Below are positions 14,186 to 55,156 of a stretch of 64,000 nt of DNA, one piece after another. Within the stretch, counting starts at the first letter, position 1. The number at the start of each line of letters is the position of its first letter. The translations under genes were made by a program, and so were the position numbers. The stretch covers positions 2,315,525-2,379,524 of the forward strand of contig CAIIXF020000004.1 of NCBI GenBank assembly GCA_903813345.2. Reading direction: 5' to 3'. The notes under the pieces were generated by a model. It saw only the letters and a list, made by a program, of their open reading frames with translations, was not told the origin of the DNA and ran no database searches. This DNA comes from Owenia fusiformis (taxonomy: Eukaryota; Annelida; Polychaeta; Sabellida; Oweniidae).

Positions 14186-14779
14186 TTAAGTAATACTAGA
14201 AACGAATTCAACAAACTTTTCTTTTAATTTAGAATCATTTTCAAGTGAAAGGGAATTTTGAAAAAATAGAGATTCAATTTTTTCTTGTCCATTGAGTGGG
14301 GTCCACAGGTTGTGCTGTTCGAGGGATTCTTCAAGTTGTGTTCTTTGAGTAGAATGGCGCTTGCAATGCAGAATTAAGTGTTTTTGGGTTGCACTCTTAC
14401 CACAGACACATAGGTTAGATGTGTTAAGAAAATTATGAGCAAACTTTTGTGATTCAAAATAAAGTCCACATCTAATTCTGTTTAGGATAATTTCTTGTTT
14501 TCGAGACAAATTTAGTTTTGATGTTGTATTGAAGTCAGTGAATTTAAAAGTTTTGTTTTTGATTTTACTTTTGAACATTGAGATGGTGGGAATAGATCTA
14601 TCTTCTGGGGATAACCTATTCCATTCAGAAATTAATCGCAAAACTGGTGCTTTATTAAGTCGAGAGCTTGATTTTGCCGGTATTTGGAAAGTCTATGGGT
14701 TCTAAGAGCCCTTCTTTGCTCAGATTTATAACGGTCAAAAAGTTCAATGATATAATCGGGTGCCATGTTTTTACAAATC
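14186..14779 (-). pseudogene. LINE C-terminal region with C-x-C...H...C motif
   Basis: Two minus-strand frames (14632-14779 and 14186-14641, offset by a frameshift near 14640) carry the part of the polyprotein after the RT. The first has ICKNMAPDYIIELFDRYKSE followed by a basic segment. The second has an IRCGLYFES stretch, then NLCVCGKSATQKHLILHC (CxC-x7-H-x3-C), the zinc-knuckle-like motif usual at the C-terminus of CR1-type LINEs. The stop at 14186 is followed by a short 3' UTR and the ATGAA-rich tail. Confidence 0.75.
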
Positions 14780-14783
14780 TTAA

Positions 14784-15588
14784 AGTCCCCGTCTAAAGTT
14801 TGAAAATATTTTTTTATCATTCATTTACTATTTGTCAGGGCTTAAAAAGTGATTTTAGAGATTTTTGAACAATAAATATTTTTGAAAAAAAAGTTGTGAG
14901 CATTTCATTTCTCAAATATTCAAATTTCCCGCCATTTTTCAAAAAAAGTTGAAATTTCTTAATCATCAAATATTTCTTAATGCATTTCAAAAAATATTAT
15001 CTTTTTAACACCAATGCAAAGGTTGAACAAAGGACACACTATTTCAATAATAAAATGCCATATTTAATGGGCCACTTTGATGTTTTAGCATATCAAAAAT
15101 ATTTTGAGACATTAGTGATGTCACTAAGGTACCAAAAACTTTTTGAAAAAAATTTTTTTTTCGATGTCAATCTTTTCTAAATGTGTTAGACTTTCATAAA
15201 AAACCAATGTTGATTGTCTAACCAGGTTAAAAGGAAAAATAAATTATGTTTTAGATATCATTGTACCATTGGTTTCTATGAGAACTAAAATTTTGAAATG
15301 CATTTTTCTCAGAACCATTTTCATGCACTGATAAGTTCATTTCTCGCTTATTTATGAACCGATTTTCACTGATGGATGAATGCTATGCATTGGTATGAAT
15401 TGTGGCTAATTAGAAGATATGAGTGACCTCTAAAAGTTGGTTTTAAATAAATTCACAAATTTTGGAACAAAAAGTCTATCAAAAAACACTTTTTGAAATT
15501 TAAAAAAAAAGTTTCACATATCATACTTTGATAACATTGGGTAAGACTACAATTTAAGCCAAAGTGGTTTAAACTTTATATGGGGCCT
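14784..15588. mobile_element. TTAA-flanked MITE nested in the LINE
   Basis: An 805-bp block interrupts the LINE reading frame between the MFK and ICKN codons. Its ends, agtccccgtctaaagttt (left) and the complement of aggccccatataaagttt (right), match at 15 of 18 positions. Perfect TTAA lies at 14780-14783 and 15589-15592. TTAA duplication is used by piggyBac- and Kolobok-type elements, and I do not choose between them. No transposase is present. Removing the block restores the LINE context, so this insertion is younger than the LINE. Confidence 0.8.
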
Positions 15589-15591
15589 TTA

Positions 15592-16361
15592 AACATGATA
15601 ATGCGATCTTTATCTCTTCTTCTGGATTCAAGTGGCTTCCACTTTAGACAATTAAGAGTTTTTATAGTATTTGAGCCATGTAGAGCCCCTGAGCAGCTGA
15701 GTGCTGCTTTATAATGCAGTCTGTCTAGTTTTATCAGATTTTGAGCTGTGCTAGAGCCATAAATTGAACTACAGTAATCTAAGTGTGGTAAAATAAAGGA
15801 ATTTTATATAAGTTCAAGGTGCTTTGACTTTAATTTGTAGGAAAGGGATTTCAGCGGGTTGAGCTGTTTTTGCACCTTGCTGGCAAGTTCATTTATGTGT
15901 ATGTCAAATTTTAAGCGATGGTCAAAAATGAATCCCAAGTGTTTATGGGAAGTTTTGTATGGAATTTTATCTCCTTCAAAATAAAGCGGACTTATGTCAA
16001 AATTATCTATATTTTTAGGTTGGAATATCATATGGGCACTTTTTGATGCCTTAAATTTCATGTGCCATTTGGTAGACCATTGTTCACTTTTGTTCAAATC
16101 ATGCTGCAGGTCAAAAGTTTGGTTACCATCAATATTAAAAGAAGCATGGGCTGACGTGTCATCAGCATAGATGAAGCATTCTGATCTTAGATCATCAGGA
16201 AGATCGTTTATGTAGATAAGGAAGAGGAGTGGCCCAAGGACGGATCCCTGAGGCACTCCTGTGTTGATATATCCGGAGTTAGACAAGGCAGATTTTACAC
16301 CATCTACTGTTACGCAGATTTTCCTTTCTGAGAGATATGATTTGAGGAGTGATAAGGTCAT
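15592..16361 (-). pseudogene. LINE reverse transcriptase, palm/thumb part (YADD)
   Basis: The minus-strand frame contains the RT block GVPQGSVLGPLLFLIYINDL and then CFIYADDTSAHASF, with the catalytic YADD intact. W.MKFKASKSAHMIF, HLGFIFDHRLKFD and a KVQKQLN stretch follow, all as expected for Jockey/CR1-type RTs. After HLELI a TAA nonsense codon interrupts the frame, but the same frame goes on with NSFILPHLDYCSSIYGSS to the nested MITE at 15588. Confidence 0.85.
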
Positions 16362-16379
16362 ACCAGAGATTCCATAGGA

Positions 16380-16796
16380 TTAAAGTTTATGGAGGAGCAA
16401 CACATGCGGAACAGAGTCAAAAGCAGAGCTGATATCAAGGAAACAGGCATTTACACATTTCCCTTTTTCAAATTCATTAAAAATAAAATCAGTGATAGCC
16501 GTAATTTGGAGTTCGGTATTGTGACCAGCTAGGAATCCGGATTGTTTTGCAAAAAGTAATTTATTTGTAAAGATGTGTTCAGTGATTTGTGAATGCACAA
16601 CTGTCTCAAAGATCTTTGAAAGTCCTTGAAGTAGAGTTATGGGCCTATAATTTTCGATTGCTGTTCTCTCATTTTTTTTGTAAATTGGTATGGTGTTGCC
16701 TTCCTTCCATATAGCCGGAAATTTTCCAAACTTGAAGATCAAATTAAATAGGTCAGCAAGCTTAACTGATAATGATGGAGAGGCTAGTTTGATCAT
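16380..16796 (-). pseudogene. LINE reverse transcriptase, finger part
   Basis: The minus-strand frame has FPAIWKEGNTIPIYKK, then NYRPITLLQGLSKIFE, the QSGFLAGHNTELQ block, and FLDISSAFDSVPH. The last is RT block A, with the catalytic aspartate in the LDxxxAFD pattern. It is separated from the downstream half by a one-base-type frame change near 16370. Residues needed for polymerase chemistry are present in both halves. Confidence 0.85.
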
Positions 16797-17512
16797 TTCA
16801 TTAGTGATATTGTCTAAGCCAGCTGCTTTGTTCTTTTTTAATGATTTTATAATTAGGGCAACATCTTCCGGTAATGTATATAGGTTGTCAATTTTGATTT
16901 GAGTTCTTCTATTGAAATGCGAAGTGGATGGTCAAAATTATGGTCAGTATGGTATTTTGATGTGAAAAATGATAGAAACAGGTTCGCTTTTTCAAGGCTT
17001 GTAGTGGCAAGGAGATTCCCAAATTTCAAAGAGGGGAAACCACTGTAATATTTTCTATTTAAAAGTTTTTGAATTATTGCCCAGTATTTGTTGCTTCCAT
17101 TATTTTCCGTCTCAAGGTTGTCAAATATTTTGGAATGATAGTTTTCTTTCGCTTCCGTGATTTTTTCTTTCACTTGCTGAGCTAGGATTTTATAGTTGTC
17201 ATGGTCAATCTGTTTATTCGAATTTTTGAACTTTTCATAGAATTGTGATTTTTTTCTAATCAAGTGTTTGATGTTATTGTTTATCCATGGTTGATCTTTA
17301 GAACTGAAGGTAGTTATTTTATTTGGGATGTTTTGTTCGAAAATGTTGAATATATCGCTAGTAAATGTTTCAGTTAATTTATCAATATTCTTACATTCAC
17401 TATATCTTTGTTCAATGTTGATGTCAAAAATTTGGCTGTTTATCTCCTCTATGTCAGATTGGTCAAATTTCCAAAGACGTTTTTGATATTTTGAGGTTCC
17501 TACAATTTTCAT
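16797..17512 (-). pseudogene. LINE linker between endonuclease and RT
   Basis: The 219-residue minus-strand frame begins MKIVGTSKYQKRLWKFDQSD, has an Ile/Asn-rich helical stretch, and includes KDQPWINNNIKHLIRKKSQF (the W.....I..LI..R...Y pattern common after the endonuclease in Jockey/CR1 LINEs) and NKYWAIIQKLLN. It is out of frame with the endonuclease ORF upstream and the RT downstream, so at least two indels have occurred. Confidence 0.75.
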
Positions 17513-17524
17513 TGGAAATGTTAG

Positions 17525-18697
17525 TTACAATGTCGAGTGGTCAGTGCAGCCTATTGGATGTGTAACTTTAGTTTCTCTTAAAAGGTCTGGTGAATTGGTA
17601 ATGGCTAGGTCAATACATGATCGTGATTGGTTGGTTATTCTTGTGGCTTCATGAATAATTTGGACAAGGTTACTTTCAATTAAAATTTCATCTAGTCTTT
17701 CCCCATTTAAATCAGTAAGCCCATCAGACCACCATTTTTTGTTCTTGGAGTTAAAATCTCCATTTATAAGTAAGTAATCGTTCTGACTTTTAGAGGCTTC
17801 CTTAAAAGTGTGTGCAGCATTTTCAAAAAATAGTTTTTCTTGGTTTCTATCTATATTGGGAGATTTATAGTAAATCCCATACAAAATTTTAGTGTTTTTG
17901 TATTTTATCTCTGCACAGATACAGTCTGTAGTATCTAAGTCAGGTCTTAGTTTTAATAATAATTCCCTTCTCACATAAATTAATAATCCCCTGTTGTTTG
18001 GGTTGTATAATGGGGGGTGAAAATCATCACCAAGAGAAAATCTTTGGTCAATCACATCAAATGTATACTTTCCAGCTTCACAAATGCCTACAATACTAAT
18101 ATTCTCTGATACAACTCTGTTTCTTAAAGTTTCAAACCTAGCGCCATTTGATGCTCCGATACTGTTGATATTTGAGAAAAGGAATTTAACATCATGTATC
18201 TTTTCTATGGGACCTGGATTTTTTTCTACTGTTCCTATGGTTACGAGCAGAAAACTTAGATCTGGTTCACTCAAGCGGTGAAAGATCTCTAGGGAGATAA
18301 TTAGTGATATAGTCAATTTAATGTGACATGTGACCTCTTTAAATTTCATTTTTGGATTTAGAGTGTCCAGAAAAATGGATATGATGTTTATTATTATAAA
18401 CATGAGCAACACTATGCTATGTGACCATACAACAAAAATTAGGCACCAGTGCAGTAAGGTTGTTGCTATTGTGTTCAGTTCTGAAACACAAATGGAGTCA
18501 AAATCCATCATGCTGTAGATCAAGCATAAAATGTAAAGAGTAAATATAACTCTTTCCCAATTTGTGGTAAGAGTTAAAAACCTTTCAAACCTTTTCCAAC
18601 TGTGAGTATGATGGTATTCAGTGCCAGCTTTCGAAGAATTAAAAAGACCTATTCTGCAGCGCCATGTTTGGAGGTCAATACTGCCTACGTTATCCCC
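17525..18697 (-). pseudogene. LINE N-terminal region with 2A-like motif and APE endonuclease
   Basis: The minus-strand frame begins with a region carrying QTWRCRIGLFNSSKAG and several hydrophobic stretches, then LLVTIGTVEKNPGP at about residues 152-165. The last is a 2A-like ribosome-skipping motif, with Thr where canonical 2A has Asp. The endonuclease follows at once: FLFSNINSIGA, a VGICEAGKY segment with the catalytic Glu, ILYGIYYKSPN, INGDFNSKNKKWW and, at the end, GCTDHSTL. No ATG precedes the WRC motif in frame (a stop lies just upstream), so the true start is lost. 2A in APE-type LINEs of marine invertebrates is established; activity of this variant is not known. Confidence 0.8.
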
Positions 18698-18910
18698 CAC
18701 TCACCCTCGAACAACACAACCCCTGGCAACCCACAGTCAGGACTGAAAACAAGAAAAGCAAAATGATTCGTACAGTGAATGTTTTTGAGGAAATCAACAT
18801 ATCTTGTGCATATTAATATTATCTCCAGAAGTCCCTTTAATTGGTTATTCTAGTTTAGAGCCCCGACCCCGACATTTTGCATGTTGATGCCTTGTTTGTT
18901 TATTTGACAG

Positions 18911-32849: not shown

Positions 32850-33860
32850 GGTGAAGAAGGTGGTGACGATCACTTACTTGAGTTGGGAAAATAATTTTCA
32901 CCTGGGAATGTAAAGACAATGTGAATAGAAGGTGGTGACGATCACTCACTTGAGTTGGGAGAACAACTTTCACCTGGGAATGTAAAGACAATGTGAATAG
33001 AATGTGGTGACGATCACTCACTTGTGTTGGGAGAACAATCTTCACCTAAGAATGTAAAGACAATGTGAATAGAAGGTGGTGACGATCATTCACTTGTGTT
33101 GGGAAAACAATCTTCACCTAAGAATGTAAAGACAATGTGAATAAAAGGTGGTGACGATCACTCACTTGTGTTGGAAGTACAATCTTCACCTAAGAATGTA
33201 AAGACAATGTGAATAGAAGGTGGTGACGATCATTCACTTGTGTTGGAAGAACAATCTTCACCTAAGAATGTAAAGACAATGTGAATAGAAGGTGGTGACG
33301 ATCACTCACTTGTGTTGGAAGAACAATCTTCACCTGAGAATGTAAAGACAATGTGAATAGAAAGTGGTGACGATCATTCACTTGTGTTGGGAGAATAATC
33401 TTCACCTGAGAATGCAAAGACAATGTGAATGGAAGGTGGTGACGATCACTCACTTGTGTTGGGAGAATAATCTTCACCTGAGAATGCAAAGACAAGGTGA
33501 ATGGAAGGTGGTGACGATCACTCACTTGTGTTGGGAGAATAATCTTCACCTGAGAATGTAAAGACAATGTGAATAGAAGGTAGTGACGATCACTTACTTG
33601 TGTTTGGAGAATAATCTTCACCTGGGAATGTAAGGACAATGTGAATAGAAGGTGCTGACGATCACTCACTTGTGTTGGGAGAATAATCTTCACCTAAGAA
33701 TGTAAAGACAATGTGAATAGAAGGTGGTGACGATCACTCACTTGTGTTGGGAGAACAATCTTTACCTGAGAATGTAAAGACAATGTGAATAGAAGGTGGT
33801 GACGATTACTCACTTGTGTTGGGAGAATAATTTTCAACTGAGAATGAAAATACGATTTGA
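32850..33860. repeat. 72-bp tandem array, about 14 copies
   Basis: The unit contains ggtggtgacgatcactcact, tgtgttgggagaataatctt and cacctgagaatgtaaagaca atgtgaatagaa. The period is exactly 72 bp over most of the array (markers near 32933, 33005, 33077, 33293, 33365, 33437 and 33725). As 72 is divisible by three, both strands show repetitive open frames (24-residue periods). These are artefacts of the period, not evidence of a gene. Confidence 0.9.
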
Positions 33861-37698: not shown

Positions 37699-39660
37699 GG
37701 AGGAGCCAGAGTCTAACCCTAACCCCTAACCCTAACCCCTTACCCCAACATTACCCCTAACCCTAACTATAGCCTAACCCTAAGCCAGAGCCTAACCCTA
37801 ACCTCTAACTCTAACCTCAACACTACAACTAACCCTAACTATAGCCTAACCCTAAGCTAGAGCCTAAGCCTAACCCCAACACTACCCCTAACCCTAACTA
37901 TAGCCTTACCCTAAGCCAGGGCCTAACCCTAGCCCCAACACTACCCTTAGCCCTAACTAAAGCCTAACCCTAAGCCCAAGCCTAACCCTAACCCCTAATC
38001 CTAACCTTGACTTAACCCTAAGTAATCAAATACAGTGTTCAGAATGATCATTTATCAATTGGGAGACCTATAATTGGAAATGTGTGTTGTTTTGGTTTTC
38101 TTTGATGAATATTCCCCAGGGTAGAACAACAACTGGAGAAAATGACCAATTTTTCTGTATCCTCCATACTAAATATTTCTCTGTAAACATTCAGAAGCAA
38201 TAATAATGATTACAATTAGTTTATGTAATTGATAACACATGAATTGTTCTATCATTTGACAAAGTTTAATGTCACGATGGTCTGTACTATTTCCCAAAAG
38301 TGTCGAATAAGCATTTTTTCGCAAAAATCTACCCCGTGTTATTAAATATGCGCATAAATAAGAGATATTAATTGCCTATTTCTTTAAATTACAAAAACTT
38401 ATTCTAGGCAAAATGTGCTTTCCAGATATAGCTCATTCAGCTCTGTACTACCTCCCCATCTCAAACTAGACACCTCCCAACACATCTAGCCATGGGTTCC
38501 AATTTTAGTCAATATCCCAGGAAAACATCTAATTGCAGAAAGGGGATGGGTAACTTTAATCATTCATATATCTGGAAAAAATAGTCGAATCTGCTTGCGG
38601 TTTGTATTATTTTAGTAGACAATAACTTGGGGTTACATTTTGGAGGAAATTACAATTGTAACTTAAAGGATGGGTCACTACTATCGCCCATTCTGGAGTA
38701 CCAATTTTTTTTTAATTTGGTCATATTTCTCAACTATTTCCAGTTTTTATTGGGACTTTCATTAATTTCATCTCTCTCAATGCGTTTGACAAAGTTTCAT
38801 GTCACTATGGTCCATGCTTTTCCCAAAAAAGTGCTGAATAAGCATTTTTTCGCAAAAATTTACCCCGTGTTATTCAAATATGTGCATAAATTAGAGAAAT
38901 TTATTGATTATTTTTCTAAATCACAAAAATTGATTCTAGGCAAAATGTGCTATCCAGATTGGCTCAATCAGCTCTGTAATACCTCCCCAGCTCAAACTAA
39001 ACATCTCCCAACACATCCGTCATAGGCTCCAACCAGGAGTCAACTTTTTGTTACTTTTGGTCATATTTCTCTACTGTTTCCATGATTTTTATTGGAATTT
39101 TCACAAATTTTGCTCTAGAAGGCTAAATCATTGGCCATGACCTAACCCTATACCCCAACAATATCTCTAACCCTAACTATAGCCTAACCCTAAGCCAGAG
39201 CCTAACTCGAACCCTTAACCTGAACCCCAACACTACCCCTAACCCTAACTATAGCCTAACCCTAAGCCAGAGCCTAACCCTAACCCCTAACCCTAACCCT
39301 AACCCCAACACTATTCCTAACCCTAACTACAGCCTAACCCTAAGCCAGAGTCTAACCCTAACCCCTTACCCCAACATTACCCCTAACCCTAACTATAGCC
39401 TAACCCTAAGCCAGAGCCTAACCCTAACCTCTAACTCTAACCTCAACACTACAACTAACCCTAACTATAGCCTAACCCTAAGCTAGAGCCTAAGCCTAAC
39501 CCCAACACTACCCCTAACCCTAACTATAGCCTTACCCTAAGCCAGGGCCTAACCCTAGCCCCAACACTACCCTTAGCCCTAACTAAAGCCTAACCCTAAG
39601 CCCAAGCCTAACCCTAACCCCTAATCCTAACCTTGACTTAACCCTAAGTAATCAAATACA
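37699..39660. repeat. CCCTAA-derived interstitial arrays and ~1-kb satellite unit
   Basis: Two blocks (about 37711-38030 and about 39140-39650) consist of ccctaa-like words in a longer register (accctaactatagcctaacc ctaagccagagcctaac). They resemble the vertebrate/invertebrate telomere hexamer TTAGGG but are degenerate and bounded by other DNA. Between them is a unique-looking ~650-bp spacer that includes a divergent version (about 38790-39030) of the sequence at 38265-38510, so the whole is a satellite with a ~1-kb unit. Confidence 0.75.
37736..38683 (+). repeat. 948-bp segment duplicated at 39362-40309, copy 1
   Basis: Offset to the second copy is 1626 at both the left and right ends, so there is no net length change. 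I saw no base difference in the portions compared by eye. Left of 37736 the copies differ by one 12-bp CCCTAA-type indel. Confidence 0.85.
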
Positions 39661-46580: not shown

Positions 46581-47244
46581 ATGGGCACTAGCATTGACCA
46601 ATGGCGATGTGCCATTGGCAGATTCCACCCATGTAGACAGCCCAACAGATCCGACAATACAGAAAGGAGGGCAGAAAGAGAGTATCATAAAGCTCTACAT
46701 AAGAATAAAGGCCATCAAAACAGTGCTAGTCATGAGAGTAAAATTCAACAAAGGCAACACCTGTACTATAGTGCCCAAAAGAATACAATCACGCCAAATG
46801 ACCATGTGGACAATTTGAAACGAAAAGCACAAGAGCTTGCAAAACAATGCAATGAATGGTTTGAAGTGGTAAGAAAAGGCTACACTGATACAACGGCTAC
46901 ACATGAACAAAATGCATCCGTGGACAGCACTGGGGCAGCATTTCAAGAAGAGAAAAGCCAAGGTGTGATTACTAGTGTTCAAAAAGGAACTTCCGGTCAA
47001 AATAACTCACTGAGTTACAATGGATGCATAGTGCAAGAAGGTCAAACTGCCAATCAAGAAGAGCGGGACCAAGGACATCAATATGAATTAAACAAAAATA
47101 ACGCTGATTTTGTGAAAATACGGATGAATCAGCATTGGGTTGAGTCATTACAGAAACTGCCCCAGCTATTGATAATCATCATGCTCTTACTGATAGTTGG
47201 TGGAATTGAAGTCAACCCTGGGCCTCAAACACATGGTATTAAAG
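46581..47244 (+). CDS. Locus C, exon 1: N-terminal region ending in hydrophobic segment and 2A-like motif
   Basis: Starts at ATG 46581 in a good context (aaaaATGGG) and ends at attaaag|gtaacc in phase 1 after 221 codons. The opening MGTSIDQWRCAIGRF is followed by a Gln/Asn/His-rich, mostly disordered-looking region (about 20-185), then LLIIIMLLLIVGGIEVNPGP (about 195-214). NPGP marks a 2A-like ribosome-skipping site; the canonical Asp two residues before Glu is Gly here. In sea urchins such N-terminal hydrophobic-2A segments precede NLR proteins and can act as signal sequences (established). Here skipping would free the NTase-TPR protein. The QWRC.IG.F motif is shared with the LINE at 14006-18801. 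Confidence 0.65.
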
Positions 47245-47723
47245 GTAACCAGAATGAATAACACTATATCTTGTATAATGCATTTAGTATTCTAAGAAAC
47301 AAGCTGTAATTGTTTTTGTACAGTGCAACATAAATTGGCAACATAAATTCAAATGCACTCATTACAATTTATTTTACACTAGACAAATTTAGTGCCATAT
47401 CGACATCACAATGATTTAGCAGTAATGATGTGTTGAAAAATGCTACCTGGTTATTCGGCTTTGATGTATACCACACACCCACTTCATAAGCCTTGTTAGC
47501 CTCAAAGGTACAAACATTGTAACATGAAAACACCTCAGGTTTTGAATACTAGTATTTACTTTAGAGTTATTTGAATAAGAAATTTTCCTCAGTGAACATA
47601 TTCGAAAATTGTGCATTTAAAATCAATATCTACTATTTTTACAATGCCTTGCTCTTATAGATGATAATTGCATGTAACAGTTCAATTTCATTGTTATTAT
47701 AGCAGTAAAACATTATGTTTTAG
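47245..47723. other. Intron 1 of locus C
   Basis: GT-AG intron (gtaacc ... tgttttag), AT-rich, with nothing else recognised. Confidence 0.55.
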
Positions 47724-47816
47724 CTGAGTCCATTTCTGAAGGCCATCCCTCTGAACCTGATGTAGTAAAGGACATGGAGCAACATCCTGAAGCACCACAA
47801 CTAGATGATACAAAAG
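47724..47816 (+). CDS. Locus C, exon 2: acidic linker
   Basis: A 93-nt, phase 1-1 exon between ttatgttttag and acaaaag|gtttgg. It reads (A)ESISEGHPSEPDVVKDMEQH then PEAPQLDDTK, an acidic low-complexity linker. Its length and phases keep the frame from exon 1 to the large exon. It has no domain of its own. The donor (gtttgg) is weak. Confidence 0.5.
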
Positions 47817-48288
47817 GTTTGGGGAGTTTACACATTTACACACCTAATGTTATAAGTGTCACGATTCGATTTATTCCGTACTTAGTCATGTAAATGACAT
47901 GCAGAATATGAATGATATCTGAAGTGAGCAGGTGATACGAGGAGCGATCCATATACTGTATTCTGATAAAAATGCTCTCATTTTGTGATTTTTTTCACAT
48001 ATCTCTCTCATCTTGTCAGAACATATAGATTATACAATCATACATACGATGCTAAAATATTATAGCTATTATAGTACATCTTAAATTAATTTAGTGATAA
48101 GGTTGCCATGGTAACTGTATTAAGGGTAGGCAGATCAATTAAATTATAACCGATAAAATATCATATAATAACTTGTTATTTTAATTATTTTGAAGCATGT
48201 GGAAATCATACATTTTTCTAAAAAAGTTTATAATTGTTGCTCGTTGTTTATTGCTTAACAAATGATATCCGTCGGTAAACAGGATTTT

Positions 48289-48367
48289 GTTTACCACCTA
48301 TACATCGGTTTACCACCTGTACATCGGTTTACCACCTATACATCGGTTTACCACCTATACATCGGTT
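48289..48367. repeat. 19-bp tandem repeat, four copies
   Basis: tttaccacctatacatcgg is repeated four times with single-base variants. Confidence 0.85.
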
Positions 48368-48789
48368 TGAAGACTTGGTCAACAGCTTTTGATTCACATA
48401 AGTTTTAATTTAGTCAATAACTCAGATCCGATAGTTTCACCACCATTCATTCGGGTCAGATAGCATCGTGGCAGGTATAGTAGAAAGTTCCCTTCAACTT
48501 GAATATTCATCAGTTCTAATGGGTCAATAAAACCTTGTGTATCTAATAGTTATGCAGCTTAAAATGTGTAGTAAAAGAATATAGTATCTGCTAATACAAG
48601 AAAATGTATTTCACTTTTTGATTTAATAATGTGGGCTCTATAGGGAATCTCCCCGAACTAGAAGTCACATTTTCAAAAAAGTTCAATTTTCAAATTTTCG
48701 AAACTGATATTTCTAGATGTTCTTTACATGTAGAGTTCAAACATGACGTCACTTTAACTGAATTTTGAATATTTAATGACGTAAATCAA

Positions 48790-48960
48790 AATTATTTTAT
48801 TTTTTTTATTTTCTTATTATTATTTTTTATTTTTTTATTTCAAAGAATAAGCATGTTAAAGCAATTGCAAAAAACAATTACAATACAGTTACATGGTAAA
48901 CATACATTTTACAATTTTAGAATACAGTATTGGTTAAACATTAGTCTTTAAGAGATGTTA
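48790..48960 (-). mobile_element. Possible LINE 3' tail
   Basis: On the minus strand a ~110-bp segment with acatgcttattctttgaaat runs into a long (A/T)-rich AATAAA-like tail. It resembles the 3' ends of the other LINE fragments in the window, but no target duplication was found. Confidence 0.35.
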
Positions 48961-48976
48961 TACCATTGGCAGTTTT

Positions 48977-50155
48977 TAGCTCACATGGTGAGCTTTTGCA
49001 ATCACTCACTTGTCCGTCTGTCTGTGCGTGCGTGCGTGCGTCCGTCCGTCCGTCAACAATAGTGGCACGTTTTAAAACCTCTGTCGATAGGATTCCCGTT
49101 TTAAGTTATTTGTGTTCAACATCAATACAGAAAACTCCCCTCTGACTCCTGGTTCAAAAGCTCGCCTAATTTCAAGATGGCCGCCATTTTTGTCACGCGA
49201 GATTCATTTTTGACCCATTTCCTAGCTTTATAAATAATGTCAGGTGTCCTGCATTGTTAAAATCCATGTCAATGTGAAGAGTAGTTATAATGAAATAATT
49301 TTGTTACAAAAAATCAGCAAAAAATTATATCCGTTTTTTTATTTTCAGCCATTTTAGTTAACATTGATTTGTCCATCTGACTCGCGAAGTCCACTTTTCC
49401 GTCAACAATAGTGGCACTTTTTAAAACCTCTGTCGATAAGATTCCCGTTTTAAGTTATTTCTGTTCAACATCAATACAGAAAACTCCCCAATGACTCCTG
49501 GTTCAAAAGCTCGCCTATTTTCAAAATGGCCGCCATTTTTGTCTCGCGAAATTCACTTTTGACCCATTTCCTAGCTTTACAAATAATTTCAGGTGTCCTG
49601 CATTGTAAAAATCCATGTCAATGTAAAGAGTAGTTGTATGAAATAATTTTGTTACAAAAAATCAGCAAAAAATTATATCCATTTTTTTATTTTCAGCCAT
49701 TTTATTTAACATTGATTTGACCATCTGTCCCGCGATATCCACTTTTGAACCATTTGCCTTAAAACCTCTGTCGATAGGATTCCTTTGTTAACTTTGATTT
49801 ATCCATCTGTCTCTCAGTCAGTCCAAAATAGTGGCAAATTTTAAAACCTCTGTCTGTCGACACTTGTTGATAGGATTCCCGTTTTAAAATATTTTTGTTC
49901 AACATCAATAAAGAAAAAAAAACTGTGACTCATGCTTCAAAATCTCGCCTATTTTCAAAATGGCCACCTTTTTGGGGTCGGGAAATTCACTTTTGGCCCA
50001 TTTCCTAGATTTACAAATAAGTTCAGGTGTCCTGCATTGTAAAAAGCCATGTCTTTGTAAAGAATAGTTGTATGAAATAATTTTGTTCCAAAAAATCGGC
50101 AAAAAATTATATCAGTTTTTTTATTTTCACTTTTGAGCAACACCATGTGAGCCCA
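48977..50155 (+). mobile_element. TAGCTCACATGG-ended repetitive element with internal ~350-420-bp tandem units
   Basis: The left end is tagctcacatggtgagcttt then a gtccgtctgtctgtgcgtgc/gtccgtcc microsatellite. The right end contains accatgtgagc. In between, a unit (atagtggca..ttttaaaacc, ctctgtcgataggattcccg, caaaatggccgccatttttg, tttcctagctttacaaata) is present three times, the last copy shorter and more divergent. A solo end of the same family lies at 61900-61995 in the opposite orientation. It sits in intron 2 of locus C. Confidence 0.65.
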
Positions 50156-50791
50156 GTACTCACGGTACTAATTTTTATTTTATTTAAAGGAAAAAATCAT
50201 CAGTATCATTTGTTTAATTTTGCTTCCATATATTTTATTATGGACAAACGGGTTGGCAGAGGCGATAAGTGGAAAATCAAAATTATTAATACTCGCTTCT
50301 AGTCTATTGGCTGGTTTCATGTAAAATCATACAACATGGGTGACAAGAGGAGGAAAACCTCAGTGCTTTCAATTGAAGATATGGATCTTCTCGGAATTAC
50401 CATGGAGTATCCCCCCTCTTATTGGTACTTGGTGACTATTGGTCATAGGAATATTTGATCATATTTGATTCCACAATCAATAGTTGATGACTGTCACGTT
50501 TTTCCATCATTATCAACCATCGTTTAATCCAATAGTATTGAATAATGTATTTTTAATATTACTTTTCATTTTATGCTCATTCTATAGAAATAAATAAAAA
50601 ATATAGGTCCAGTTAGGGTCCGAGTTGACTAGGGTGAGAGTTATCAACGGTCCCAGATGACTAGGATCTGAGTTGTCTAGAAGGCTTTACAACTGCATCC
50701 AACAACCAATTCTACGTTAAATTTTGCTTACATGTCCAAATACTCCAAATACCTGTCGAATCTTTGTATGAAGATATCACATGTTTTGCAG

Positions 50792-52310
50792 AAGTTAAAG
50801 CAGTTGAGATACCAAAAGAATTAGAACAGATGTACAATCTCGGGAAGAAAATTAGCGATTGTGACCAGACAACACAAATGAGAGAGCAAGCAGGCTACAT
50901 GTGTGAGCTTGGATCCTTGTACACAGCGCTGGCACAAGAAACATCTGAGGGTTGGGATTTCATCTATGCGACAGCTCTCTACAATGCAGCATTACAGCGT
51001 ATTAAACAATCCGAAATCAACAGTTCGAAAGAAGAGGTATTGCCTTGCTTTAAACATATTGATGCTGACTATATTGTAGAAAAATTGCAAGAAATAGAAA
51101 CACATTTTCTAGAATCAGTCTCAAAGGTAAACCCAGAGTCAACAATATGTTGCACTAAAAGATACAAAAAGGGTCTGGAGGAACTGAGAACATATTCAAA
51201 TGAAACCATCGATAATATACATCTTAATGATATGCAAATTGATGGCATAACCTTTGATATGAGTGATGAGAGTATAAATAGGACAATTGAGAACAGCAAG
51301 ATGTATTATGAAAAGCTGGCAGATGAGATTGTTAAATTTCATCAGCTAGTAATAGGTGACTGTATTTCAGTCTTAGGGGTCCCTAAGGTTAATAGGTATG
51401 CATTCATAGGTCTTGGTTCACTCGCTAGAAAGGAAGTCACAGCTTGGTCAGATCTCGAGTCAGCAATAATATATGATCCCTCAGGAAAAAAACCCTCAGA
51501 ATGTGAAGCACTGAAGCAAGAATTTAGAGTCTTGGTTCATTACTTCCATATGAAAGTAATCAATTTGGGCGAAACTAAAATCAATGTATTGGATATTCCA
51601 GTCCTTGCTGATTTCAACAAACAACTCCCGAAAGGTTTTAAAGACAATGACTTTTTTGATGAAGTAACACCGCAGGGAATCTGTTTCGATGGAACATTGC
51701 CAAAGGCAAGTAAACATCCCTTAGGTAGAAGGTCTACTACAATTCCTCATGTAAAGCCTGTCAGTTTTGAGTTGATACAGCCAATTGATGACATGGTTAA
51801 TTGCCAAAATGAAGAAACATCAAAAAGAGAAGGTTATAATCTGAGCGATGTTCTTATGACAACAACGTTCCTCTCTGGTGATATTTCATTATGGGAAGAT
51901 TACGATAAGAAGGTTCATGAGAAACTTGAAAGCACGGGTAAGAAGCGCGGACAAGCCACAATGATTAATGACTTGAAAAACTATCAAATTAAACCCCTTT
52001 TACCAGAATCATTTCAGAAACCAGTAAAGGCCAAACATGACCTCTACAGATTCGCAACAATTTCCATCAACACTCTTAAATTATTACATAACTGTAAATC
52101 ATTCAACCCTATAGATGTCTTAGAGGAATTATGCCTCAAAAACATACTGTGTGAAGGTGCAAAGAAAGATTTACAGCTCATGGTATGTTTAGCTGTTAAT
52201 ATGAGGCATCTAGTATACAGCAGGTATGACCAACAGAAGGAGTTCATTTCCTTTATCGTCCCTTCTCAAGAACAAGGCAAGGTCGACTGGTCAGCCTTCA
52301 GAGTTAGTTT
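50792..52310 (+). CDS. Locus C, exon 3 part 1: pol-beta-type nucleotidyltransferase domain
   Basis: The open frame enters after acatgttttgcag in phase 1 (acceptor at 50791/50792) and runs to the frame break near 52310. An N-terminal helical region (GWDFIYATALYNAALQRI) is followed by YAFIGLGSLARKEVTAWSDL and ESAIIYDP, the hG[GS]...Dh[DE]h nucleotidyltransferase signature, with Gly-Ser and an Asp-x-Glu pair positioned as in the PII-uridylyltransferase/DUF294-like N-terminal domain. A helical C-terminal section continues to WSAFRVS. Animal proteins joining this domain to TPRs are often labelled TPR28- or nephrocystin-3-like. Catalytic residues appear intact. The nucleotide and target are unknown. 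Confidence 0.75.
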
Positions 52311-55156
52311 CTGTAAGAGACTTCACTGCTATATACAGGTTTTATGCAACACTCCTCCCTTGGTCAGACTTTCTAGAAGAACATTCACATGATATTACCT
52401 CATGTTCACATGCAACAAGATATATTGATAGCAGTGACAATGTTAAAGGTAAACTTCATAGTGAAATGTATTTCTTTGAAAATGCACTTAAAACATTTGA
52501 AAAGGAAGAATCGAGGCTTGAATCAATGGATAAAATGCAATACAGCAAAGAATTAGTTGATGTAAAAGTCGAACTAGCAAAATTACATTTGGCACAAGGA
52601 CACCACGATGATTCAATAAAATATCTAAATGAAAGCTTAAAATTAAATGAAGCAAAACCTGGACTCATAGCTATATATTTAACCTGTAATATATTGAAGA
52701 TCCTTGGTGATGCCTATCATGGAAAAGGTGAACATGAAAATGCCATCAAAAACTACAAGCAGAGTCTGATAAGAAGTAAACTGATATCTGGAAATCAACC
52801 AGATGAAAGGGTATCAGCTCGACTGGGCAACATTGGTAGTGTTTACAACAGCACTGGTCAATATGATGAGGCTTTAACTTACCTTAACCAGAGTCTGGTC
52901 ATGCTAAAGCTGATATATAAAGATCAACCACATGCAGGTATAGCATCCTTACTTGGCAATATTGGTTTTGCTTACAACCGCAAAGGTCAATATGATGAGG
53001 CTATTAAATACATTGAGCAGAGTCTGACCATGCGAAAGCTGATATATAAAGATCAACCACACCCTGACATAGCATCCTCATTGGGCAACATTGGTAGTGC
53101 TTACCTTAGCAAATGTCAATATGATAAGGTTATTAAATACATGAAGCAGAGTCTGACCATGCTAAAGCAGATATATAAAGATCAACCACACCCTGATATA
53201 GCATCCTCGCTTGGCAACATTGGTAGTGCTTACGGCAGGAAAGGTCAATATGATGAGGCTATCAAATACCTGGAGCAGAGTTTAATCATGCTAAAGAAGA
53301 TATATAAAGATCAACCACACCCTGACATAGCATCCTCAATGTGCAACATTGGAAGTGCTTACGACAGCAAATGTAAATCTGATGAGGCTATTAAATACCT
53401 TGAGCAGAGTCTGATCATGCGAAAGCTTATATATAAAGATCAACCACACCCTGATAAAGCAACCTCACTGGACAGCATTGGCAGAGCTTACAACAGCAAA
53501 GGTCAATATGGTGAGGCTATTAAATATCTGGAGCAGAGTCTGACAATGCGAAAGCTAATATTTAAAGATCAACCACACCACCCGGGAATAGCATCCTCAC
53601 TGGGAAACATAGGAATTGCCTACGGCGGCAAAGGTCAATATGATGAGGCTATTAAATACCTGGAGCAGAGTATGATCATGCTAAAGAAGATATATAAAGA
53701 TCAAAAACACCCTGATATAGCATACTCACTTGGCAACATTGGTAGTGCTTATTGCAGCAAAGGTCAATATGAAGAGGCTGTTAAATACCTTGAGCAGGGT
53801 CTGGTCATGCTAAAGAAGATATATAAAGATCAACCACACCCTGACATAGCATCCTCACTTGGCAACATTGGAAGTGCTTACGACAGCAAAGGCCAATATG
53901 ATGAGGCTATAAAATACCTTGAGCAGAGTCTGATCATGCTAAAGAAGATATATAAAAATCAACCACACCCTGACATAGCATCCTCACTGGAAAAGATTGG
54001 AAGTGCTTACGACAGCAAATGTAAATCTGATGAGGCTATTAAATACCCTGAGCAGAGTCTGATCATGCGAAAGCTTATATATAAAGACCAACCACACCCT
54101 GACATAGCAACCTTACAGGGTAAAATTGGATTTGCTTACAACAGCAAAGGTCAATATGATGAGGCTATTAGATACCTTGAGCAGAGTCTGATCGTGCTAA
54201 AGAAGATATATAAAGATCAACCACACGCTCATATAGCATCATCACTTAACAACATTGGTAATGCTTACGACCGTAAAGGTCAATATGATGAGGCTATTAA
54301 ATACCTGGAGCAGAGTTTAATCATCCTAAAGAAGATATATAAAGATCAACCACACCCTGACATAGCAACCTCACTGGGTAAAATTGGTGTTGTTTACAAC
54401 AGCAAAGGTCAATATGATGAGGCTATTAAAAACCTGGAGCAGAGTCTGACTATGCGAAAGCTGATATATAAAGATCAACCACACCCTGGCATAGCAACCT
54501 CGCTGGGTAACATTGGTTTTGCTTACAACAGCAAAGGTCAATATGATGAGGCTATTAAATACCTGGAGCAGAGTCTGACGATGGAAAAGAAGATATATAA
54601 AGATCAAACACACCCTGATATAGCATCCTCACTGGGCAACATTGGTAGTGCTTACCTTAGCAAAGGTCATTATGATGAGGCTATTAAATACCTGGAGCAG
54701 AGTCTGACAATTCGAAAACTGATATATAAGGATCAACCACATCCAGATATAGCTAATTCTCTTACCAACATTGGAGGTGCCTTTGCAGAGAAATGCCAGT
54801 TCAGGAAAGCTATAAAATACTACAAGCAGGCCCTGGGTGTGTTGCATGTGGTGTTTAAAGATCAACCACACCCTGATATAGCAGACTTAATGAAAAACAT
54901 GGGTAATGTTTATGCCAGCGTCGGTGAAAACAAGGAAGCTATAAACTTCTATGAGCAATCTTTGGCTATGGACAGACAGATGAAAGGCCACGAGATCAAT
55001 CTGACGGTATCAAGGCTACTAATAGATATTGGTTTTGCATGTCAGCGCTCCAGGCAGAGAACAAAGGCCATTGCATATCTCACAGAGGCTTTTTCAAACC
55101 TTGATTTCATAAGTTACCGATATAAACTGAGTAAAAGTAAAGCAATGCAGAAATGA
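52310..55156 (+). CDS. Locus C, exon 3 part 2: TPR array, about 19 repeats
   Basis: From the frame break near 52310 the second frame is open to TGA 55156. It starts VRDFTAIYRFYATLLPWSDF, then has a helical region and about 19 tetratricopeptide repeats of 42 residues (consensus LGNIGSAYxSKGQYDEAIKY LEQSLxMxKxIYKDQPHPDI). This is the kinesin-light-chain/NPHP3 TPR subtype used for protein binding. Units are very alike in DNA as well (126-bp period), pointing to recent expansion. Two units carry the same odd DSKCKSDEAIKY variant five repeats apart, one unit has an extra His (QPHHPG), and one has a Pro in helix B (KYPEQSL). The last three units are diverged and probably cap the solenoid. No obvious C-terminal domain follows. 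Confidence 0.85.
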   Translation, partial: SVRDFTAIYRFYATLLPWSDFLEEHSHDITSCSHATRYIDSSDNVKGKLHSEMYFFENALKTFEKEESRLESMDKMQYSKELVDVKVELAKLHLAQGHHDDSIKYLNESLKLNEAKPGLIAIYLTCNILKILGDAYHGKGEHENAIKNYKQSLIRSKLISGNQPDERVSARLGNIGSVYNSTGQYDEALTYLNQSLVMLKLIYKDQPHAGIASLLGNIGFAYNRKGQYDEAIKYIEQSLTMRKLIYKDQPHPDIASSLGNIGSAYLSKCQYDKVIKYMKQSLTMLKQIYKDQPHPDIASSLGNIGSAYGRKGQYDEAIKYLEQSLIMLKKIYKDQPHPDIASSMCNIGSAYDSKCKSDEAIKYLEQSLIMRKLIYKDQPHPDKATSLDSIGRAYNSKGQYGEAIKYLEQSLTMRKLIFKDQPHHPGIASSLGNIGIAYGGKGQYDEAIKYLEQSMIMLKKIYKDQKHPDIAYSLGNIGSAYCSKGQYEEAVKYLEQGLVMLKKIYKDQPHPDIASSLGNIGSAYDSKGQYDEAIKYLEQSLIMLKKIYKNQPHPDIASSLEKIGSAYDSKCKSDEAIKYPEQSLIMRKLIYKDQPHPDIATLQGKIGFAYNSKGQYDEAIRYLEQSLIVLKKIYKDQPHAHIASSLNNIGNAYDRKGQYDEAIKYLEQSLIILKKIYKDQPHPDIATSLGKIGVVYNSKGQYDEAIKNLEQSLTMRKLIYKDQPHPGIATSLGNIGFAYNSKGQYDEAIKYLEQSLTMEKKIYKDQTHPDIASSLGNIGSAYLSKGHYDEAIKYLEQSLTIRKLIYKDQPHPDIANSLTNIGGAFAEKCQFRKAIKYYKQALGVLHVVFKDQPHPDIADLMKNMGNVYASVGENKEAINFYEQSLAMDRQMKGHEINLTVSRLLIDIGFACQRSRQRTKAIAYLTEAFSNLDFISYRYKLSKSKAMQK

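What the first reader, a model, noticed from the sequence alone, without database searches (positions are those of the whole stretch)
46581..55156. A 2A-like ribosome-skipping/signal segment placed in front of a nucleotidyltransferase-TPR protein
Exon 1 ends LLIIIMLLLIVGGIEVNPGP and is phase-compatible, through a 31-codon exon, with an NTase + ~19-TPR exon. 2A-like motifs in cellular genes are known mainly at the N-termini of sea urchin NLRs, where they can switch between signal-peptide and skipping behaviour. A 2A-controlled pol-beta NTase with a TPR ligand-binding array would be a new architecture, plausibly a sensor made in two locations. Seen: motif, exon phases, NTase signature, TPRs. Inferred: that the three exons form one mRNA and that the 2A works.
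Basis: partly seen in the sequence, partly recalled or inferred. Interest (0 to 1): 0.9.

Follow-up and report, generated by a model that had tools for sequence, protein, structure and literature searches.

The report
Retrotransposon-like 2A leader on gene family
An invertebrate genome carries about 65 closely related genes for large enzyme-plus-repeat proteins, and most of them begin with a short leader, resembling the start of a jumping gene, that carries a virus-type signal for making two proteins from one message; the copy first spotted is a damaged member of this family.

Summary
The 2A motif (GIEVNPGP, 47202-47225), phase-1 exons, DUF294 nucleotidyltransferase and TPRs are real, but NTase and TPRs are not one reading frame: four extra bases near 52281 separate them, an OTU domain present in the three closest sister loci is reduced to a relic, and the exon-2 donor is weak. 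The window copy is probably decaying. The larger finding: in this genome 41 of 65 close NTase genes have a same-strand 2A motif within 20 kb upstream (random placement: mean 0.2). The leader exon, MG-x5-WR-x2-IG-x-F ... [GA]G[VI]ExNPGP, has a phase-1 best donor in 49 of 50 copies tested; in five C8 genes only a 220-312 bp intron separates it from the NTase exon. A transmembrane-like stretch is missing in 18 of 48 distinct leaders, so skipping rather than membrane anchoring looks like the conserved feature. Non-LTR retrotransposons here begin with the same motif at the same spacing and carry a 2A before their endonuclease, suggesting domestication. The OTU-DUF294-TPR core matches the NEX2 family of Neochlamydia. 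Cellular 2A leaders are known from sea urchin NLRs, so this is a new variant. Skipping, splicing and function are untested.

The parts
46581..47244 (+). Exon 1, leader exon (221 codons + 1 base), phase-1 donor AAG|GTAACC
   Evidence: Open from ATG; copies 78, 70 and 65% identical at C4:1203006, C5:9465892, C4:13943968; NG86 dN/dS 0.35-0.52 over six pairs
46581..46625 (+). Start motif MGTSIDQWRCAIGRF (MG-x5-WR-x2-IG-x-F), shared with retrotransposon ORFs
   Evidence: profile comparison E 5e-9 over 17 columns
47157..47201 (+). Hydrophobic run before the 2A core
   Evidence: 19-residue hydropathy maximum 2.43 in the window leader
47202..47225 (+). 2A core GIEVNPG/P; skipping would fall between codons 47220-47222 and 47223-47225
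   Evidence: Sequence; fits (D/G/C/N)(V/I)ExNPGP of PMC12846837
47447..47521 (+). Relic of the OTU domain (about 25 codons, 60% identical to the end of OTU exon 2 of L012), in intron 1
   Evidence: tblastn E 1.6e-5 in a small local search
47724..47816 (+). Exon 2, 31-codon linker exon; weak donor AAG|GTTTGG
   Evidence: Matched in L009 (65%) and L012 (59%); donors compared
50792..52392 (+). Exon 3, first part: DUF294 nucleotidyltransferase, ending out of frame at the stop 52390-52392
   Evidence: Pfam PF03445; GLGSLAR(K/M)E..(A/V)WSDLESAI in all six aligned copies; dN/dS against four sister sequences 0.15-0.27
52281..52285 (+). Four extra bases relative to sister sequences: frameshift between NTase and TPRs (placement within the run is approximate)
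52214..55156 (+). Exon 3, second part: TPR frame, no internal stop; main array 52822-54753
14186..18700 (-). Non-LTR retrotransposon remnant with the same start motif (GSIDLQTWRCRIGLF) and a 2A (TVEKNPGP, 18210-18229) before an endonuclease domain; not part of the gene, but the related element
   Evidence: Frames; Exo_endo_phos_2 E 1.1e-11; motif and 2A 152 residues apart

Best explanation
The window holds a probably decaying member of a family of about 65 close genes built as 2A leader exon - (OTU) - DUF294 nucleotidyltransferase - TPR array. Shown by sequence: the recurrent leader exon with its 2A core, its linkage to the NTase, its phase, and purifying selection. Inferred: the leader is spliced in phase 1 to the downstream exons; during translation the ribosome skips the Gly-Pro bond at NPG/P, releasing a leader of about 50-215 residues and then making a separate cytosolic (OTU-)NTase-TPR protein that begins with proline. 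In the 30 of 48 distinct leaders with a transmembrane-like stretch, unskipped product would be membrane-bound or ER-directed. Inferred: the leader exon came from the 5' end of a non-LTR retrotransposon of the kind that still carries the same start motif and a 2A. Inferred from family knowledge only: the NTase nucleotidylates proteins chosen by the variable TPR array, plausibly in defence.
For: Linkage: 41 of 65 close NTase genes have a same-strand 2A within 20 kb upstream; random placement gives mean 0.21, maximum 3 in 2000; 0 of 21 distant NTase hits and 0 in both opposite-strand controls. Phase: 49 of 50 leaders have a phase-1 best donor. Five C8 genes: introns of 220-312 bp, phase-1 at both ends, spliced frame open to the end of the sequence held. 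Leader dN/dS 0.35-0.52; NTase 0.14-0.27 in nine of ten pairs. Core p11 = G/A and p12 = G in 48 of 48 distinct leaders, positions that were not in the search pattern. 18 of 48 leaders are not transmembrane-like, 16 of these with two or more charged residues in the 15 before the core, yet keep the 2A. Core within the range measured active for viral sequences (PMC12846837; PMC6249498). Retroelement link. NEX2 homology.
Against: No transcript or translation data. 24 of 65 genes have no 2A match within 20 kb and 17 no leader match within 40 kb; for 9 of these 17 I read 2.4-2.5 kb upstream and saw no leader. Most leaders were found through the 2A pattern, so conservation of p13-p19 is partly built in. 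Some members have altered cores (MDPGP, GVQLNPGP). The window copy and its close sisters are often broken: L009 frameshifted, one L011 copy with a stop in the TPRs, the other ending at 583 codons. The leader's middle part is weakly constrained (dN/dS 0.41-1.0). Motif 5 of PMC12846837, the context most like these leaders, was not among those assayed there.
Confidence: 0.7

Rival explanations
1. The leader is a signal anchor or signal peptide that places the NTase-TPR protein on or across a membrane; the NPGP motif is a remnant and does not skip.
For: 30 of 48 distinct leaders, the window's among them, have a transmembrane-like stretch. Sea urchin NLR 2A leaders work as signal sequences when skipping is abolished (PMC4981915).
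Against: 18 of 48 leaders lack such a stretch but keep [GA]G[VI]ExNPGP; p11-p12 conservation was not selected for by the search.
Confidence: 0.15
2. The leader exon is a retrotransposon fragment or a small separate gene and is not spliced to the NTase.
For: The start motif and 2A occur in retroelements in the same genome. Introns of several kb separate leader and NTase in the window and elsewhere.
Against: Recurrence beside the NTase (41 of 65), phase-1 donors (49 of 50), short introns in C8, conserved linker exon 2, no endonuclease frame after the leader in the six fuller loci.
Confidence: 0.04
3. The window copy is simply a pseudogene; the architecture matters only in other members.
For: Frameshift, OTU relic, weak exon-2 donor.
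Against: Frame beyond the break has no stop to 55156 and dN/dS 0.27-0.52 against three sisters, so the break is recent, polymorphic or an assembly error; exon 1 is intact. This rival concerns the copy, not the family, and is compatible with the best explanation.
Confidence: 0.6
4. The flow was the other way: the retrotransposons captured a host leader with its 2A.
For: The shared motif gives no direction by itself.
Against: Retroelement starts are more varied (MG, MP, GS) and 7 of 8 have D at p12, while host leaders look like one derived set (mostly QWR, p12 = G in 48 of 48). This is not a phylogenetic test.
Confidence: 0.2

Closest known systems
Sea urchin NLR 2A leaders (SpNLR2A; Roulston et al. 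2016, PMC4981915: abstract, introduction, first part of Results and Discussion read)
   Same: 2A at the N-terminal end of members of a large host family with repeat domains; leader hydrophobic in many; 85 of 241 NLRs reported to hold 2A-like sequences; one leader shown to skip and to act as signal sequence
   Different: Here the protein is (OTU-)NTase-TPR, not NACHT-LRR; leaders are 54-215 residues in the 48 compared, not 26; they start MG-x5-WR-x2-IG-x-F; p12 is G; 18 of 48 are not transmembrane-like
2A in APE-type non-LTR retrotransposons (Odon et al. 2013; not held, known from citations in PMC4981915 and PMC12846837)
   Same: 2A ahead of the endonuclease; elements here share the leader's start motif
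   Different: The host gene has no endonuclease or reverse transcriptase; p12 is G, not D
NEX2 family of Neochlamydia (PMC4209131, section 8 and passages read)
   Same: OTU (in ten NEX2 members) - DUF294 - TPR order; plasmid pS13 protein matches the window NTase over 98% at 29% identity
   Different: F-box at the N-terminus in the bacterium, 2A leader in the animal; bacterial genes have no introns
GlnE/GlnD/DUF294-type nucleotidyltransferases
   Same: DUF294 Pfam hit over cut-off; weak GlnE/GlnD hits far under their cut-offs
   Different: TPR array and 2A leader; substrate unknown

Membership tests
2A/StopGo element | Core (D/G/C/N)(V/I)ExNPGP | tested here: met
   GIEVNPGP in the window; 44 of 48 distinct leaders keep E at p14 and N at p16 (one D at p16, two Q and one H at p14)
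2A/StopGo element | Two products made from one frame by ribosome skipping | not testable with these tools
   Needs a translation assay
2A/StopGo element | Permissive upstream context | tested here: inconclusive
   L-rich run ending (A/G)G at p11-p12 resembles motif 5 of PMC12846837, which was not assayed there
Sea urchin type dual-targeting 2A leader | Leader also acts as signal sequence | tested here: inconclusive
   Hydropathy only: 30 of 48 distinct leaders transmembrane-like, 18 not
Sea urchin NLR | NACHT and LRR domains | tested here: not met
   Pfam shows DUF294 and TPR families only in the parts listed
NEX2 (Neochlamydia) family | OTU - DUF294 - TPR core | tested here: met
   L012, L009, L010/L011, L014; the window keeps DUF294 and TPRs, OTU only as relic
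NEX2 (Neochlamydia) family | N-terminal F-box in most members | tested here: not met
   No Pfam hit at E 0.1 in the window leader; the bacterial protein has one
Pol-beta-type NTase (DUF294) | GS motif and paired acidic residues | tested here: met
   GLGSLAR(K/M)E...WSDLE in all six aligned copies; activity not testable here

The most novel reading that the evidence does not exclude
A retrotransposon's 5' leader, start motif and 2A recoding site included, was domesticated as a first exon and spread by duplication over a large family of chlamydia-like OTU-NTase-TPR genes, so that an animal frees each of many putative sensor/effector enzymes from its leader by programmed ribosome skipping, with natural core variants (GVH, GVQ, MDPGP) tuning free against leader-bound forms.
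Probability: 0.45. Interest if true: 0.9.

Novelty: new variant of a known kind. Interest (0 to 1): 0.78.

Why it matters
Natural 2A use in cellular genes is described as rare (PMC12846837), and the authors who characterised the sea urchin NLR leaders called speculation about origins fruitless (PMC4981915). Here one genome holds retrotransposons and a large host family that share both a 2A and a start motif, so the origin becomes testable. The natural series of leaders, with intact, altered and possibly dead cores on similar genes, lets one ask what skipping does for a cell. The core protein is homologous to a family of a bacterial symbiont, a candidate for gene exchange between chlamydiae and an animal.

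Tried and rejected
Chance: rejected (163 pattern matches against 8 reversed; 41 of 65 against 0.21). Separate retroelement fragment: rejected. N-myristoylation of the nearly invariant MG: the PROSITE position-6 rule (recalled) is met by 6 of 48 distinct leaders, so not adopted. An intron hiding the frameshift: none plausible by eye in the sequence (the GT...AG stretch there is about 20 bases and does not restore the frame). Prokaryote genome scan with the NTase alignment: one hit, L092, which lies in what I read as a BipA-like GTPase ORF; rejected. Viral contigs: 34 stretches matched a pattern, none confirmed (patterns narrow). PDB by sequence: one hit at E 0.8, unrelated. AlphaFold on the window NTase alone: mean pLDDT 37.3, discarded. 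OTU against plasmids: one weak hit, Legionella lytica plasmid, E 3e-5, not opened. Species: 12 large contigs and 498 Mb made me think of Owenia fusiformis from memory; not verified, not used.

Literature: ten searches ran. In the rows listed I saw no title or abstract start on a 2A-NTase-TPR or 2A-OTU cellular gene. Rao et al. 2025 (eukaryotic and viral 2A survey; seen only as a reference entry) and Odon et al. 2013 are not held and may include this family, so I do not claim it is absent from print.

Dropped or partial: L079 (found by the start motif, GVQLNPGP), L070 and L071 (C11) were left out. L035 (start codon lost) is missing from the 50 but is among the 51. Of 104 start-motif hits only the 100 listed were used. 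Of 118 unlinked 2A hits, 20 were fetched, and L015 had been.
Full report
What the window shows. Exon 1 (46581-47244) is open from ATG and ends in a hydrophobic run and GGIEVNPGP/QTHGIK. With exon 2 (47724-47816) and exon 3 (from 50792) it makes a phase-1 chain, AAG|GTAACC, AAG|GTTTGG, GCAG|AA. Exon 3 codes for a DUF294 nucleotidyltransferase (Pfam E 3.5e-6) and then TPRs, 15.0 copies of a 129-bp unit in the main array. But the NTase frame stops at 52390-52392 and the TPRs are in another frame. Against four sister sequences (L009, two in L011, L012) the window has four extra bases at about 52281-52285 (L009 lacks six more nearby). The frame beyond has no stop up to 55156, and dN/dS is 0.27-0.52 against three sisters, so the break is recent, polymorphic or an assembly error.

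One of many. In the window's own genome (498 Mb, 525 contigs) the leader protein has 8 matches, four of them over the whole query, the window's included. The NTase has 89, of which 68 are at least 43% identical, 65 genes after merging pieces. Of 66 of those close hits, 58 lie in open frames of 850 residues or more (lengths). The DNA pattern for [VIM]ExNPGP has 163 matches against 8 for its reversed control (full lists). A same-strand match lies within 20 kb upstream of 43 of 68 close hits, of 0 of 21 distant ones, and in neither opposite-strand control; within 70 kb, 48 of 68. As genes: 41 of 65, against mean 0.21 and maximum 3 in 2000 random placements. Against: 24 of 65 have none within 20 kb, 17 have no leader match of either pattern within 40 kb, and in 9 of these 17 I read 2.4-2.5 kb upstream without finding one.

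The leader exon. Of the 45 linked leaders, 43 fit MG-x5-WR-x2-IG-x-F ... [GA]G[VI]ExNPGP exactly; L023 ends the start motif in L, and L035 has lost its start codon. The best donor after the 2A is phase 1 in 49 of 50 leaders; the exception, L021, has a phase-1 donor second. In five C8 genes the intron to the NTase exon is 220-312 bp with phase-1 ends and the spliced frame is open to the end of the sequence held; the donor of L038 is weak. Leader dN/dS among the window and three sisters is 0.35-0.52 over the whole exon, 0.41-1.0 in its middle part; NTase 0.14-0.27 in nine of ten pairs, 0.49 in the tandem pair of L011. In 48 distinct leaders (51 loci) p12 is G in 48, p11 G in 36 and A in 12; p14 is E in 45, Q in 2, H in 1; p16 is N in 47, D in 1. 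47 of the 51 match the 2A pattern used to find most of them, so conservation of p13-p19 is partly built in; p11 and p12 are not. Start-motif hits without a pattern match had cores GIEMDPGP, GVQLNPGP (three) and GVHLNPGP (L075-L079).

Would it skip? PMC12846837 (opening part, sections 9 and 10, and passages read) widens the core to (D/G/C/N)(V/I)ExNPGP, finds p12 = G about as common as D in viral ORFs, and measured about 90% or more activity for rare variants including p12 = T and p14 = H. Its motif 5 ends (A/G/S)G at p12, as these leaders do, but was not among the four motifs assayed. PMC6249498 (passages) reports skipping by GxExNPGP of DHAV-1. So most cores here lie in the active range; that is inference from motif. 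A transmembrane-like stretch (19-residue mean hydropathy at least 1.6) is present in 30 and absent in 18 of 48 distinct leaders; 16 of the 18 have two or more charged residues in the 15 before the core. This favours skipping over anchoring as the shared function but does not prove it.

OTU and decay. The three closest sister loci (L009, L010, L012) and the more distant L014 carry OTU exons between leader and NTase; the 10-kb L013 does not. Joined from L012, the exons hit Pfam OTU at 2.9e-11. Genome-wide the OTU query has 37 exon matches, several with stops. The window keeps a relic of about 25 codons, and its exon-2 donor is weak where two sisters have GTAAGG and GTGAGC. The close clade is often broken: L009 is frameshifted in its NTase, one L011 copy has a TAA in the TPRs, the other ends at 583 codons. 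Members with only 262-396 bp from 2A to the NTase match (C8) have no room for OTU, so a form without OTU exists.

Retrotransposon link. Of 20 unlinked 2A stretches fetched (of 118), I read 12 as retroelement ORFs, 3 as leader-like (L058, L070, L071) and 5 as short or unassigned (Pfam was run only on the window's own element, Exo_endo_phos_2 E 1.1e-11). Of 13 retroelement stretches (12 and the window's), 9 hold x7-WR-x2-[IV]G-x-F, and in 8 of these a 2A follows in frame, its core 141-154 residues after the motif's first residue. The motif occurs 72 times in the 299,800 bases then held (chosen and partly overlapping sequence) and 0 times in five shuffles. Host and retroelement leader profiles align with probability 95.9, E 5e-9 over 17 columns at the start. 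In 7 of the 8 retroelement cores p12 is D, in the window's it is T. I infer one domestication; direction is not tested by phylogeny.

Core homologues. Of 72,556 plasmid records only Neochlamydia sp. S13 pS13 matched the NTase at E 0.01 or less (98% covered, 29.2% identity, E 3e-28, 11 places). The protein scanned has an F-box-like domain, DUF294 and many TPRs, and a SidM_N match under its cut-off (E 2.9e-5). PMC4209131 (section 8 and passages) describes NEX2: 50 proteins, C-terminal TPRs, F-box in the majority, DUF294 in most, OTU in ten. The animal family has the same core with the 2A leader instead. Chlamydial chromosomes were not searched, so transfer and its direction stay open.

Mechanism. 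Most likely phase-1 splicing, translation of the leader, skipping at NPG/P, leader release and synthesis of a cytosolic (OTU-)NTase-TPR protein. The NTase class includes protein-modifying enzymes (GlnE- and DrrA-type, PMC3710099, passages), so protein nucleotidylation with TPR-based target choice is plausible. A role in defence is suggested only by copy number, repeat variation and the sea urchin parallel.

Limits. No transcript, no assay, no species name, no relatives: all evidence is from one genome. Rao et al. 2025 could not be read and may already list such genes.

Noticed in passing
L036, L038, L040 / G000:C8:34264376-34264561, 34412072-34413819, 34589411-34589763: Start-motif copies are repeated in tandem (two, five and two matches) ahead of single C8 members, as if the leader exon had been duplicated in place.
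   Followed up: no
L070 (C11:27982085-27983385) and L082: A leader-like exon with two tandem 2A cores (GIEKNPGP RVIETD GIEKNPGP); a TPR frame but no NTase frame of note in the 8.6 kb fetched downstream.
   Followed up: partly
L015 / L080 (C11:35430000-35447900): Leader exon with 2A, then OTU exons about 14 kb on, with retroelement pieces between; no NTase match nearby.
   Followed up: partly
L010/L011 (C5:9465000-9484999): One leader and one OTU unit followed by two tandem NTase exons, the second copy with a TAA inside its TPR frame.
   Followed up: partly
window 33262-33693 (-) and 39127-39486 (+): Open frames made of short tandem peptide repeats, probably satellite-like DNA.
   Followed up: no
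L060 (C2:34589328-34590628): A retroelement-like ORF in which the 2A (DIELNPGP) is followed by what looks like a PHD-type zinc finger before the endonuclease-like part (my reading, no Pfam run).
   Followed up: no
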